From positions 1 to 64,000 of the IMG/VR virus record IMGVR_UViG_3300043122_000207: a stretch of DNA of 64,000 bases. One strand, 5' to 3'. The DNA is from a virus. Under the pieces are notes generated by a model, which did not search any database, was not told where the DNA came from, and saw only the letters and a program-made list of their open reading frames with translations. Of the stretch, positions 25,931-29,885 are shown in pieces. How positions within the stretch are numbered: position 1 is the stretch's first letter; each line of letters starts with the position of its first letter. A program made the translations under genes and the position numbers.

Positions 25931-25947
25931 TAACTAAATAACTAAAA

Positions 25948-25976
25948 GGGAGAGTTATATACTCTCTCTTTTTTTG
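25948..25976 (+). terminator. Intrinsic terminator
   Basis: GGGAGAG pairs with CTCTCTC (one G-U) around a 7-base loop, followed by a run of T. It lies 17 bases after the 148-aa gene. Confidence 0.8.
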
Positions 25977-26064
25977 TTTTTATAATCAAATCCTACTAAT
26001 TTTTTTATAATCAAAATCTTTCTTAAAATTTTTTATAATCAAAATATTTTTTATAATCAAAATC
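25977..26064 (+). repeat. Four direct repeats of TTTTATAATCAAA
   Basis: Copies start at about 25977, 26003, 26031 and 26049 (spacings 26, 28 and 18); the last three extend to TTTTATAATCAAAAT. They lie in a gene-free region of about 265 bases, between a terminator and the integrase-like gene. Direct repeats like these can be iterons, arm-type recombinase sites or operators; the sequence alone does not decide. Confidence 0.7.
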
Positions 26065-26196: not shown

Positions 26197-26763
26197 ATGA
26201 GTGGTATATTAAATAACTTACCTTTAGTATTGGATGATTATCAGATTGAAGACTTATTAGAGCAGGCTAATATGGAATGCTTTACAGGTTATAGAAATTA
26301 CTGTATATTAAGGTTAATGGTTTTTAATGGATTAACTTCAACAGAAGTTGCCAGATTAAGATGGGAAGATGTTAAATTATATGAAGGGGATTGTTATATA
26401 AGAGATAATGATGACCCTAGAGATTCAAGAAGGATATTATTAGATTTTGAAACTTTAGAACACCTAAGGGATTTAAAAAGAATTCAGGCTATAGAGGTTC
26501 AGCCACATAGTCATATATTTACTACTAAAAAAAATAAACCAGTATTAGCAGTATATATCGCACATATGGTTAAACGCTATGCAAGACGTGCTTATCTACC
26601 AGAGGAGGTTAATCCATCTACACTGCGTCAGACCTTTGGTAAAAACTTATATAAAAAAACTAGAGATATTGAGGAAGTAAGAGAGCATATGGGTTATACC
26701 AAAAAAACGACCTTAAGTAAGTTTAAGTATTTAGCTGATGAGGATATAGTAACTAACTATTAA
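26197..26763 (+). CDS. Degenerate tyrosine-recombinase-fold protein
   Basis: The 188-residue protein corresponds to the catalytic domain of XerC/D-type integrases, with no N-terminal core-binding domain. Recognisable landmarks are the GLTSTEVARLRWEDV helix (45-59), NPSTLRQTFGKNL (139-151) and EHMGYTKKTTLSKF (163-176). Compared with the family, the first Arg of GLR is Thr47, the HxxR His is Ser141 (Arg144 kept), the next His is Gln145, the LGH His is Tyr167, and the usual Tyr nucleophile aligns with Phe176 (Tyr178 is nearby). Cleavage activity is therefore doubtful; a DNA-binding role is plausible. It starts after GAAAGGGG, downstream of the repeats. Confidence 0.6.
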   Translation: MSGILNNLPLVLDDYQIEDLLEQANMECFTGYRNYCILRLMVFNGLTSTEVARLRWEDVKLYEGDCYIRDNDDPRDSRRILLDFETLEHLRDLKRIQAIEVQPHSHIFTTKKNKPVLAVYIAHMVKRYARRAYLPEEVNPSTLRQTFGKNLYKKTRDIEEVREHMGYTKKTTLSKFKYLADEDIVTNY

Positions 26764-26778
26764 AAGAGGTGAATTAAA

Positions 26779-27156
26779 ATGACATTTATGGAGACCTTAA
26801 GGGTTTTAAAAAGAGGAGAACTTGTAATAGATGATGAGGATATGGGTGATGTTGAATCTATTTATATAAACTATTATGGTGATAAATATGCTAAAAGAGT
26901 TTATAAAAATACAGAAGTAATTAAAGTAGAAATAGGTTTTGATGATTTAAAAACTAATCTAATAGATTATATGAGATGGCTTGAGGATAATTTATGTGTT
27001 GAAACATCTATAGAGTATTTAAATAATAGATTAAGGTATAACTTCCCATTATCTTTAAAGATGGTTTCTATCTATAGTGTATGTATAGAAGGTTCACCAG
27101 ATATGATAAAAGAATTTAAAAAAGGGTTATTATTGGTAGGCTGTAAGATAAATTAA
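26779..27156 (+). CDS. Hypothetical protein, 125 aa
   Basis: Not recognised. It begins MTFMETLRVLKRGELV and is otherwise a soluble alpha/beta protein. It follows the integrase-like gene by 15 bases with an AAAGAGGTG site, and precedes the first Tad2-like gene. Confidence 0.5.
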   Translation: MTFMETLRVLKRGELVIDDEDMGDVESIYINYYGDKYAKRVYKNTEVIKVEIGFDDLKTNLIDYMRWLEDNLCVETSIEYLNNRLRYNFPLSLKMVSIYSVCIEGSPDMIKEFKKGLLLVGCKIN

Positions 27157-27173
27157 TTAGGGGGTAAATACTT

Positions 27174-27827
27174 ATGAATATTGATATGATAAAAGAACTT
27201 TATAAAAATAAAATAACTTCTGATTTGAATTTAGAAATAAATGATTTAGCTATTTATTCAACCAAGGATAGATTAAGACAAAGATCAGCAAAAGAGGAAA
27301 AGGTTTTTAATGTGGGCCCTTATAAAACATGTGACTTTATGGTTGAGGTTAAATACGGGTTACCTTATCTAATAGAAGGAAAAGTAACCTTCAGTTCAGT
27401 TGAAAGTGAATTAATTAAAAGGGATAAAAAATTAAATGAACTTTTAAAAGATTATGATTTTAAATTGACCTCAAATGCTATGGCTGTTGATAGGTTTGAT
27501 CCAGAAAGAAGTGATTTTTCTTTTACTATTAAGGAATTTTATAAGTTTGATAAAAATAAGAATAAAACTGTATCTTTTTCTAAAGTATTAAAAGAAGTTA
27601 AAGCTGGTAAGAAAATAGCTAGAAAAGGTTGGAATGGTAATGGGATGTTTGTTTATTATGTTGGTGAAGATAAATATAAAGCCAAAACTAAAGCAGCTAA
27701 AAAGACCTTTGGTAAGTGTGTACCATATCTTCCTTATCTGGCTTTAAAGACTGTAGATGATAATGTAGTACCCTGGACAATAAGCCAAACAGATGTCCTT
27801 GCAGAAGACTGGTATATAATTGATTAA
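27174..27827 (+). CDS. Tad2-like (DUF2829) anti-Thoeris protein with extra N-domain
   Basis: The 217-residue protein has a C-terminal domain (about 133-217) with the DUF2829/Tad2 signature: FSKVLKEVKAGKK, RKGWNG, GMFVYYV, LPYLALKT, VPWTISQTD and LAEDW. Tad2 proteins inhibit Thoeris defence by sequestering the cyclic ADP-ribose-type signal made by the ThsB TIR protein. They are normally about 90 residues. Residues 1-130 here are an extra, unrecognised soluble domain. A second copy with a different N-domain lies at 28236. Anti-defence function is inferred from the family. Confidence 0.75.
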   Translation: MNIDMIKELYKNKITSDLNLEINDLAIYSTKDRLRQRSAKEEKVFNVGPYKTCDFMVEVKYGLPYLIEGKVTFSSVESELIKRDKKLNELLKDYDFKLTSNAMAVDRFDPERSDFSFTIKEFYKFDKNKNKTVSFSKVLKEVKAGKKIARKGWNGNGMFVYYVGEDKYKAKTKAAKKTFGKCVPYLPYLALKTVDDNVVPWTISQTDVLAEDWYIID

Positions 27828-27845
27828 AGTAGGAGGTAGTACAGG

Positions 27846-28235
27846 TTGGATAAAATTGCGATAAATAACTTTTTAAATACAGCTAATGATATACTAAAAG
27901 ACATGGGTTATGTGGATGAATTGGAGTTTAACTATTTAGATGGTGAATATATATTAAAACTTATTATGTTAAGTGATTCTCCTGTTATGTTAGGTAAACA
28001 TTTGATATCTTTAAAAGATAATAAGATAAAGGTAAATAAATCAATACATGATAAGTTATTTTTGATATCTAAACTTAAAGATGTATTGGATCAATTCAAA
28101 AAAGATTTTAAAGGTAATGATTTAAAAGTATACCATAATAGAGTTATGAGAAGAGAATATGAAGCTCGCGATAGTATGATAGATGGTAGAGATTTTACTG
28201 TTATAACTAAAAATTACTTATTAGGGGATGATTAA
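27846..28235 (+). CDS. Hypothetical protein between Tad2-like genes
   Basis: Not recognised. This 129-residue soluble protein starts with TTG at 27846 after AGGAGG. It ends one base before the second Tad2-like gene, so the three genes are probably translated together. An accessory role in counter-defence is suggested by position only. Confidence 0.5.
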   Translation: MDKIAINNFLNTANDILKDMGYVDELEFNYLDGEYILKLIMLSDSPVMLGKHLISLKDNKIKVNKSIHDKLFLISKLKDVLDQFKKDFKGNDLKVYHNRVMRREYEARDSMIDGRDFTVITKNYLLGDD

Positions 28236-28985
28236 ATGTTTTATGATATAGACGATAATTTAATTCTAAAGAAAAAAGAATATACTTCAATTAGACTAAA
28301 AAACAATAATGAAGATGATAAATCAAATAGTAAGTTAAACGATATTTCTATATTTATCCCGAATATTAATATAAAAGATTTGGATGTTATATTAAAGAAA
28401 TTTAAGACATCTGAATCTACAGATAAAGAATATATAGAAGATTTCACATTGACCCTTTTAGATGGGTATCAAGAAGAAATAAAGACCTATAATATAAAAC
28501 TGGATGATAAAGAAAATAAAGTCTTATTAGAGAATGTAAACTTTAAACAAAATGAAATTTATATTATTAAAATTGAATTTGATTTTTCAAATATCGAGGG
28601 GTTTATATTTGGAGAGTGGTTATACAATATAACATTTAATGTACCTGAGAGAAAGGATGTTTCTAAAGGTGATAATATGGGTGCTGATGAGTTTCTAGAA
28701 CATGTTTCTGAAATATTAAAAGAAGATGGTGTTTCATTTTCTAAAGCTTTAAAGGCTTGTAAGAGTGGAAAAAGAATCCAAAGAAAAGGTTGGAATGGAA
28801 AGGGTATGTTTGTGTATTATGTAGGAGAAGATTCTTACCCAGCTAAAACTAAAGCAGCTAAAAATACCTTTAAAGATAATGTACCTTATCTACCATATCT
28901 AGCTTTAAAGACTGTAGATGAAAAGGTAGTACCCTGGACTATATCCCAAACAGATGCTCTAGCAGAAGACTGGGTTATACTGTAA
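28236..28985 (+). CDS. Second Tad2-like (DUF2829) protein with different N-domain
   Basis: In this 249-residue protein, about 165-249 form a Tad2 domain: SFSKALKACKSGK, RKGWNGKGMFVYYVG, VPYLPYLALKT, VPWTISQTDALAEDW. It is close to the domain in the 27174 gene. Residues 1-145 are an acidic beta-rich domain unlike the N-domain of that protein. An in-frame ATG at 28677, preceded by AAAGGTGAT, could give a standalone Tad2 of 102 residues. Anti-Thoeris function is inferred. It starts one base after the preceding stop, and its stop overlaps the next ATG (TAATG). Confidence 0.75.
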   Translation: MFYDIDDNLILKKKEYTSIRLKNNNEDDKSNSKLNDISIFIPNINIKDLDVILKKFKTSESTDKEYIEDFTLTLLDGYQEEIKTYNIKLDDKENKVLLENVNFKQNEIYIIKIEFDFSNIEGFIFGEWLYNITFNVPERKDVSKGDNMGADEFLEHVSEILKEDGVSFSKALKACKSGKRIQRKGWNGKGMFVYYVGEDSYPAKTKAAKNTFKDNVPYLPYLALKTVDEKVVPWTISQTDALAEDWVIL

Positions 28986-29284
28986 TGAAAAAGATAATAT
29001 TACTAATAGTATTGACGGTCATATTTAGTACTAGTGTATATGCAGTAGATATAAATATTACCTATCCAAAAGAGTATGAAATAATAGATGTGGAATTAAT
29101 AGATCAAAGTAAGATTAAATGGGATATGCTTATTAAAGCTAAAGATGATAATGAGTTTATTATAATACCAATTGAATTAAATTTTAAAGCAAGTCCATTT
29201 GGTATATTAGGTGATAGGGGTCCAGATAAAATTACATTTTCTAAAGGTGATGTTTACAATCCATATATATCCTATAGTGATTAA
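28985..29284 (+). CDS. Small secreted protein with signal peptide
   Basis: The 99-residue protein begins MKKIILLIVLTVIFSTSVYA, a clear signal peptide with a likely cut after VYA. The mature part is a beta-rich domain of about 80 residues with no cysteine for lipid attachment. It is coupled to the second Tad2-like gene by a TAATG overlap. Function is unknown; the exported location contrasts with the cytoplasmic Tad2 proteins. Confidence 0.55.
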   Translation: MKKIILLIVLTVIFSTSVYAVDINITYPKEYEIIDVELIDQSKIKWDMLIKAKDDNEFIIIPIELNFKASPFGILGDRGPDKITFSKGDVYNPYISYSD

Positions 29285-29305
29285 GACAATATAAGGGGGG
29301 CACCA

Positions 29306-29821
29306 ATGAGTTTATTTATTAAAGATAGATTAGATTATTTAACTAAAAAAGAAAATGAGATCAGTAAAGAAAAGAAATTGGAATCAAAAAAGCTATTGAT
29401 TAAAAACTTGTGTGATAAACCTGATACTATGTTTTATAACCTTGCTTTATCTGCAGTACTTAATTCTGGTAAGTTTAAAGATAAGTATATAAGGCGAATT
29501 GTAAAGATTGGGATATTACAGGTTTCAGAAGGTAAAAGAGTATTTAAAAGAAATGATTTATCTTTTGATAATATGTGTAACCTTAAAGAAGAATTAGAAT
29601 ATATTAAACCTATTAGTGTTCATACAAAAAAAGAAATGACTTTATATATAAAAAAAGACTTTGAAATAAATGAACACATCACAACATTGGAATCAAAGTA
29701 TCCTGATCTTAGTAGAGAAACTATAGCACACGAAATAAATAAATTATTAATTAAGGTGCCTATTGATATTATATCAGGTTCTCTTAAATTATCATTTAGA
29801 TTATTAGAATCATATATTTAA
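29306..29821 (+). CDS. Hypothetical protein, 171 aa
   Basis: Not recognised. It is a helical, basic, soluble protein. The start follows AGGGGGG. It is the last gene of the Tad2 cluster, before a hairpin and a candidate promoter. Confidence 0.55.
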   Translation: MSLFIKDRLDYLTKKENEISKEKKLESKKLLIKNLCDKPDTMFYNLALSAVLNSGKFKDKYIRRIVKIGILQVSEGKRVFKRNDLSFDNMCNLKEELEYIKPISVHTKKEMTLYIKKDFEINEHITTLESKYPDLSRETIAHEINKLLIKVPIDIISGSLKLSFRLLESYI

Positions 29822-29828
29822 AATATTA

Positions 29829-29854
29829 AGCTGAGGGTTTAAATACTCTCAGCT
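29829..29854 (+). terminator. Hairpin ending the Tad2 cluster
   Basis: A 7-bp stem, AGCTGAG/CTCAGCT, with a 12-base loop lies 8 bases after the stop. There is no T-tract directly behind it, so termination may be partial. Confidence 0.5.
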
Positions 29855-29873: not shown

Positions 29874-29885
29874 TTATATATTATA
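29874..29885 (+). promoter_or_regulatory. Candidate phage promoter, TTATATATTATA class
   Basis: TTATATATTATA followed by AAAGTGAAAG. It is preceded by TTTTATAA, as in other copies. It lies about 20 bases before the structured leader of the 217-aa gene. Confidence 0.55.

What the first reader, a model, noticed from the sequence alone, without database searches (positions are those of the whole stretch)
27174..28985. Two Tad2-like anti-Thoeris domains fused to different N-terminal domains
Two nearby genes end in a full DUF2829/Tad2 domain with near-identical motifs (RKGWNGxGMFVYYVGED, YLPYLALKT, VPWTISQTD, LAEDW). Known Tad2 proteins are about 90 residues and stand alone; these carry unrelated extra domains of about 130 and 160 residues. 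One has an internal start that could give a free Tad2. The pair with a gene between them and a secreted protein after them looks like a counter-defence island. The different N-domains may change ligand range or add a second anti-defence activity.
Basis: partly seen in the sequence, partly recalled or inferred. Interest (0 to 1): 0.75.

Follow-up and report, generated by a model that had tools for sequence, protein, structure and literature searches.

The report
Two duplicated N-extended Tad2 immune-signal sponges

Summary
Genes 27174-27827 (A, 217 aa) and 28236-28985 (B, 249 aa) both end in a full Tad2 domain (PF11195; E about 1e-25). The two domains are 76% identical in protein and 78% in DNA, are each other's closest relatives, and remain under purifying selection. 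Their front parts (about 130 and 147 residues) are unrelated to each other and match nothing I could search. (1) Tad2 does not always stand alone: about half of the distinct viral relatives have 70 or more residues in front, three PHROG families are such fusions, and fusions arose repeatedly. (2) The likely ligand is not gcADPR: sequence, tree and fold place A and B nearest Myroides ModTad2, solved with histidine-ADPR (type II Thoeris), and they lack the insertion used for cyclic dinucleotides. What remains unusual is a domain-level duplication giving two differently extended sponges in one operon of a 195-kb phage; a second Tad2 gene is rare (304 places in 302 phage records). The internal start in B is possible but not special. 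Nothing shows a counter-defence island or what the front domains do. Verdict: new variant of a known sponge family, modest interest; function inferred, not shown.

The parts
27174..27827 (+). Gene A: ORFan N-terminal part plus C-terminal Tad2 domain (217 aa)
   Evidence: ORF; Pfam PF11195; strong ribosome-binding site AGGGGG
27174..27563 (+). N-terminal part of A (about 130 aa), no detectable relative
   Evidence: no match in phages tblastn, IMG/VR, Pfam/PHROGs/NCBIfam; AF2 pLDDT mostly below 60 beyond the first helix
27564..27824 (+). Tad2 domain of A
   Evidence: AF2 pLDDT mostly 87-98, top fold match ModTad2-hisADPR 9eib
27846..28235 (+). 129-aa ORFan gene between A and B (TTG start); its stop is directly followed by the ATG of B
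   Evidence: no relative
28236..28985 (+). Gene B: a different ORFan N-terminal part plus C-terminal Tad2 domain (249 aa)
   Evidence: ORF; Pfam
28236..28676 (+). N-terminal part of B (about 147 aa), no detectable relative; low-confidence model is mainly strands
   Evidence: no relative; pLDDT about 30-60
28677..28679 (+). In-frame internal ATG with AAAGGTGA upstream; could give a 102-aa free Tad2
   Evidence: duplex energy -6.9, same as the start of B; 5.4% of internal ATGs reach this
28725..28982 (+). Tad2 domain of B
   Evidence: AF2 pLDDT mostly 88-97, top fold match 9eib
28985..29284 (+). 99-aa ORF with a signal-peptide-like start; its ATG overlaps the TAA of B and it has no clear ribosome-binding site of its own, so translation is probably coupled to B
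   Evidence: sequence
26197..29821 (+). Probable transcription unit of seven genes: tyrosine-recombinase-like, ORFan, A, ORFan, B, signal-peptide ORF, ORFan
   Evidence: terminator-like hairpin before it at 25944-25972 and a hairpin after it at 29829-29854; phage promoter-like motif at 29875 starts the next unit
25977..26063 (+). Four close copies of TTTTTATAATCAAAA upstream of the unit, possible control sites

Best explanation
A and B are two paralogous phage immune-signal sponges of the Tad2 family. Shown: a Tad2 domain was duplicated within this phage lineage so that two copies now sit at the ends of two unrelated front domains, in neighbouring genes that probably form one operon. Inferred: each C-terminal domain assembles into the Tad2 tetramer and binds and holds an ADP-ribose-type signal made by a host TIR enzyme during infection, most likely histidine-ADPR of type II Thoeris, so the host effector is not switched on and the cell survives to make phage. 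The front domains most likely tune dose, stability, location or assembly, as they may in the many other N-extended Tad2 proteins; having two copies most likely raises capacity or splits the work between two slightly different signals.
For: Full Pfam matches; confident Tad2 fold in both; best sequence and fold match ModTad2, solved with hisADPR (E 1e-27 by sequence, 53-56% identity; SPO1 Tad2 only 1e-11 to 1e-13, 34-36%). Tree: A and B are sisters (100/99) in a 27-row group with ModTad2 (96/87), apart from SPO1, HgmTad2 and SptTad2. MoTad2 inhibits type II Thoeris by binding His-ADPR as summarised in PMC13299392. All residues invariant across 50 aligned relatives (R, GWNG, G-M, W, D, DW) are kept in both. 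dN/dS about 0.15-0.3 between the copies: both domains stayed under selection.
Against: No binding or phage data. Ligand choice in this family may change with few residues, the signal-contacting residues could not be checked against the 9eib coordinates, and A and B carry SQTD where ModTad2 has SVSD. The tree rests on 90 columns with many weak forks. The host is unknown, so whether it carries type II Thoeris is unknown. A front domain could block tetramer assembly.
Confidence: 0.6

Rival explanations
1. A and B are gcADPR (2'cADPR/3'cADPR) sponges like SPO1 Tad2, acting on type I Thoeris.
For: Same family and fold; the SQTDxLAEDW segment is closer to SPO1 than to ModTad2.
Against: Overall identity 34-36% to SPO1 versus 53-56% to ModTad2; separate tree group.
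Confidence: 0.2
2. One or both bind cyclic dinucleotides and act against CBASS, like HgmTad2 and SptTad2.
For: Some Tad2 proteins bind cyclic dinucleotides (PMC12043709); the structures 8kbk and 8wjd hold cGG.
Against: The cyclic-dinucleotide site uses a long insertion between strands 2 and 5 (PMC12043709), and A and B lack it.
Confidence: 0.05
3. The front domains carry a second, separate anti-defence or host-takeover activity, making A and B two-function proteins.
For: Front parts are long, different and retained in frame; Tad2 acts as a mobile module joined to many partners.
Against: No homolog or confident fold; nothing links them to an activity.
Confidence: 0.2
4. B is translated twice, giving the full protein and a free 102-aa Tad2 from the internal ATG, so mixed tetramers form.
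For: ATG at 28677 with AAAGGTGA upstream, energy equal to the start of B.
Against: 5.4% of internal ATGs in the window score as well; among 41 N-extended relatives only 6 have a start near the domain with energy -6 or better, against 9% of background internal ATGs, so there is no clear family-wide pattern. A has no such start.
Confidence: 0.2

Closest known systems
ModTad2 / MoTad2 (Myroides odoratus prophage; PDB 9eib with hisADPR, 8v3e apo)
   Same: Closest solved relative of both domains, 53-56% identity, gapless alignment over 86 residues, same fold
   Different: Stand-alone 88-89 aa; A and B have ORFan front domains and are a duplicated pair; SQTD instead of SVSD
SPO1 Tad2 (Gp34.65; PDB 8smf, 8smg with gcADPR)
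   Same: Same Pfam family and fold; shares GWNG and SQTDxLAEDW
   Different: 34-36% identity; different tree group; stand-alone; binds type I Thoeris signals
HgmTad2 / AcrIIA7 and SptTad2 (PDB 8kbi-8kbm, 8wjc, 8wjd, 9kzr)
   Same: Same family and fold
   Different: Carry an insertion between strands 2 and 5 that A and B lack
N-extended Tad2 families phrog_872, phrog_1048, phrog_30130 (for example Vibrio phage VP06 AVI05109.1, 263 aa)
   Same: Same architecture: other front domain plus C-terminal Tad2, similar total length
   Different: Their front domains show no match to those of A and B and recur in many phages

Membership tests
Tad2-like (PF11195) | Match to the curated domain model above its cut-off | tested here: met
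   89.2 and 87.7 bits against a cut-off of 25
Tad2-like (PF11195) | Tad2 fold | tested here: met
   AF2 pLDDT mostly 87-98 over the domains; top 24 PDB matches are all Tad2 structures
Tad2-like (PF11195) | Residues invariant among relatives (R, GWNG, G-M, W, D, DW) | tested here: met
Tad2-like (PF11195) | Homotetramer with ligand pockets between protomers | not testable with these tools
   needs purified protein; single-chain models only
Tad2-like (PF11195) | Binds an immune nucleotide signal and rescues phage from Thoeris | not testable with these tools
   needs binding and plaque assays
ModTad2 (His-ADPR) group | Groups with ModTad2 rather than SPO1/Hgm/Spt | tested here: met
   tree, support 96/87 for the shared group, few columns; identities
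ModTad2 (His-ADPR) group | His-ADPR-contacting residues kept | not tested
   coordinates of 9eib and the primary paper were not available here
HgmTad2-type cyclic-dinucleotide sponge | Long insertion between strands 2 and 5 | tested here: not met
   alignment

The most novel reading that the evidence does not exclude
The phage built two two-part sponges by copying one signal-trapping domain onto two unrelated front domains, and the front domains give each sponge a different address or a second anti-defence activity, so one operon neutralises two layers of TIR-based immunity.
Probability: 0.12. Interest if true: 0.65.

Novelty: new variant of a known kind. Interest (0 to 1): 0.35.

Why it matters
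It shows that the Tad2 domain behaves as a portable part that phages repeatedly join to other domains, not only as a small stand-alone protein. That matters for annotation (N-extended forms are often labelled 'hypothetical' or DUF2829) and for function (the solved Tad2 structures found here are essentially stand-alone forms). The pair is a natural within-genome experiment: nearly the same sponge on two different front domains, so swapping them would directly test what Tad2 front domains do.

Tried and rejected
Homologs of the front domains: tblastn in 50,697 phage records, scans of IMG/VR with the two front domains and the gene between them, a genome-contig scan with the front domain of B, Pfam, PHROGs, NCBIfam, PADLOC and PDB all gave nothing usable. 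Idea that the front part of A is a paralog of the gene between A and B: not supported, BLASTP E 4.7. Synteny with related viruses: the two records with a 100% identical terminase lack the Tad2 domain and the region; one has exactly the length and offset of a fragment of the same genome. Two Fusobacterium phages with the most similar terminase have no Tad2. Fold search of the front domains: models too poor (pLDDT mostly below 60), matches outside Tad2 not significant and disregarded. Assembly artefact: rejected, since copies differing at 22% of bases cannot be a mis-assembled duplicate. Family-wide internal starts at the Tad2 boundary: 18 of 41 extended relatives have a Met at the boundary but few have a ribosome-binding site, so these look like leftovers. 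The primary His-ADPR, HgmTad2 and sponge-diversity papers were not held.

Full report
The window is the first 64 kb of a 194,604-base virus record. The virus has a large terminase related to those of jumbo phages (nearest cultured relatives Fusobacterium phages JD-Fnp, about 38-40% identity), a phage RNA polymerase beta subunit and a tail sheath, and 30% G+C. It has no close annotated relative and its host is unknown.

The finding is real. Gene A (27174-27827, 217 aa) and gene B (28236-28985, 249 aa) each end in a complete Tad2-like domain, and these are the only two in the record. The two domains are 76% identical in protein over 88 residues and 78% identical in DNA over 250 bases, and the homology stops at the domain edge. 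They are sisters in a tree of 84 Tad2 domains (100/99). dN is about 0.2 and dS 0.7-1.2. This is a domain-level duplication kept by purifying selection, not a chance match and not an assembly error. A stretch of 130-150 codons without a stop is very unlikely by chance at this base composition (about 8% of codons would be stops, own estimate), and both genes start after ribosome-binding sites, so the front parts are very probably real protein.

The front parts are unrelated to each other and to everything searched: phage records, IMG/VR, genome contigs for B, Pfam, PHROGs and NCBIfam and the PDB. AlphaFold models are confident for the Tad2 domains and poor for the front parts; the front of B looks strand-rich, but at a confidence that supports no fold claim.

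The premise that Tad2 stands alone does not hold. Of 79 distinct relatives recovered from IMG/VR, 37 have at least 70 residues in front of the domain and 31 are stand-alone (8 or fewer extra residues); these are mechanical ORF starts, so a few may be over-extended. Three PHROG families (872, 1048, 30130; 172-262 aa) have their Tad2 region at the C-terminal end, and a deposited 263-aa Vibrio phage VP06 protein is one. On the tree the extension label needs at least 9 changes forced by well-supported branches. Tad2 is therefore a portable module. Some partner domains match PHROG families that do not show a Tad2 match, among them a MazG-like pyrophosphatase family.

What is uncommon is a second copy. 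Searches with A and B found 304 places in 302 phage records and 332 in 330, and none of the 92 fetched loci (up to 6 kb each side) held a second Tad2 hit.

Ligand. Both domains match ModTad2 best by sequence (1e-27, against 1e-11 to 1e-13 for SPO1) and by fold (9eib, 'in complex with hisADPR'), with 53-56% identity against 34-36% to SPO1. They fall in a group with ModTad2 and apart from SPO1, HgmTad2 and SptTad2. MoTad2 inhibits type II Thoeris by binding His-ADPR (PMC13299392). Cyclic-dinucleotide binding uses an insertion between strands 2 and 5 (PMC12043709), which A and B lack. Histidine-ADPR is therefore the first ligand to test. This is inference from kinship: the contact residues were not checked, and the SQTD segment resembles SPO1 more than ModTad2.

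Operon. A strong terminator-like hairpin lies at 25944-25972 and another hairpin at 29829-29854, followed by a phage promoter-like motif at 29875. That motif (TATATATTATAAAAGTG, up to 2 mismatches) occurs 10 times in the genome, always on the + strand 14-190 bases before a gene start. A and B therefore probably belong to a seven-gene unit, 26197-29821. The middle gene abuts B, and the signal-peptide-like ORF overlaps the stop of B by one base without a clear ribosome-binding site, which suggests coupled translation. No scanned neighbour matches a known defence-system model at E 0.01, so 'counter-defence island' remains a guess.

Internal start. The ATG at 28677 in B has a moderate ribosome-binding site, equal in energy to the gene's own start, but 5.4% of internal ATGs reach it and extended relatives show no clear pattern of this kind. 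A free Tad2 from B is possible, not indicated.

Conclusion. Known kind (Tad2 sponge), new variant (duplicated pair with two ORFan front domains), probable His-ADPR target. The biochemical function and the role of the front domains remain to be tested.

Noticed in passing
window 26197-26763: Short tyrosine-recombinase-like gene (188 aa, PF00589 E 2.8e-18) at the head of the operon; by eye the usual first catalytic Arg and box-II His look replaced, so it may be a degenerate, regulatory form.
   Followed up: partly
window 25977-26063: Four close copies of TTTTTATAATCAAAA between a terminator-like hairpin and the recombinase-like gene; exact copies were found nowhere else in the genome. Possible operator sites.
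   Followed up: partly
window 29875, 35624, 51905, 53696 and six sites beyond the window: Motif TATATATTATAAAAGTG (up to 2 mismatches), 10 copies, all on the + strand 14-190 nt before a gene start: probably this phage's own promoter, consistent with its encoding a phage RNA polymerase subunit.
   Followed up: partly
genome 158573-159043 (L100:573-1043): Macro-domain protein similar to ADP-ribose 1''-phosphate phosphatases (PF01661 3e-7; PDB 6lfu 2e-14): a second, probable ADP-ribose-handling protein in the same phage.
   Followed up: partly
L080 (ORF of 167 aa): A viral relative whose front part itself looks like a second, diverged Tad2 domain (MNFGEALECLKNG...ASEDWEV), that is, a possible tandem Tad2 protein.
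   Followed up: no
L018, L019, L007: Relatives with extra residues after the Tad2 domain (185, 428 and 245 aa in all), so C-terminal additions also occur.
   Followed up: no
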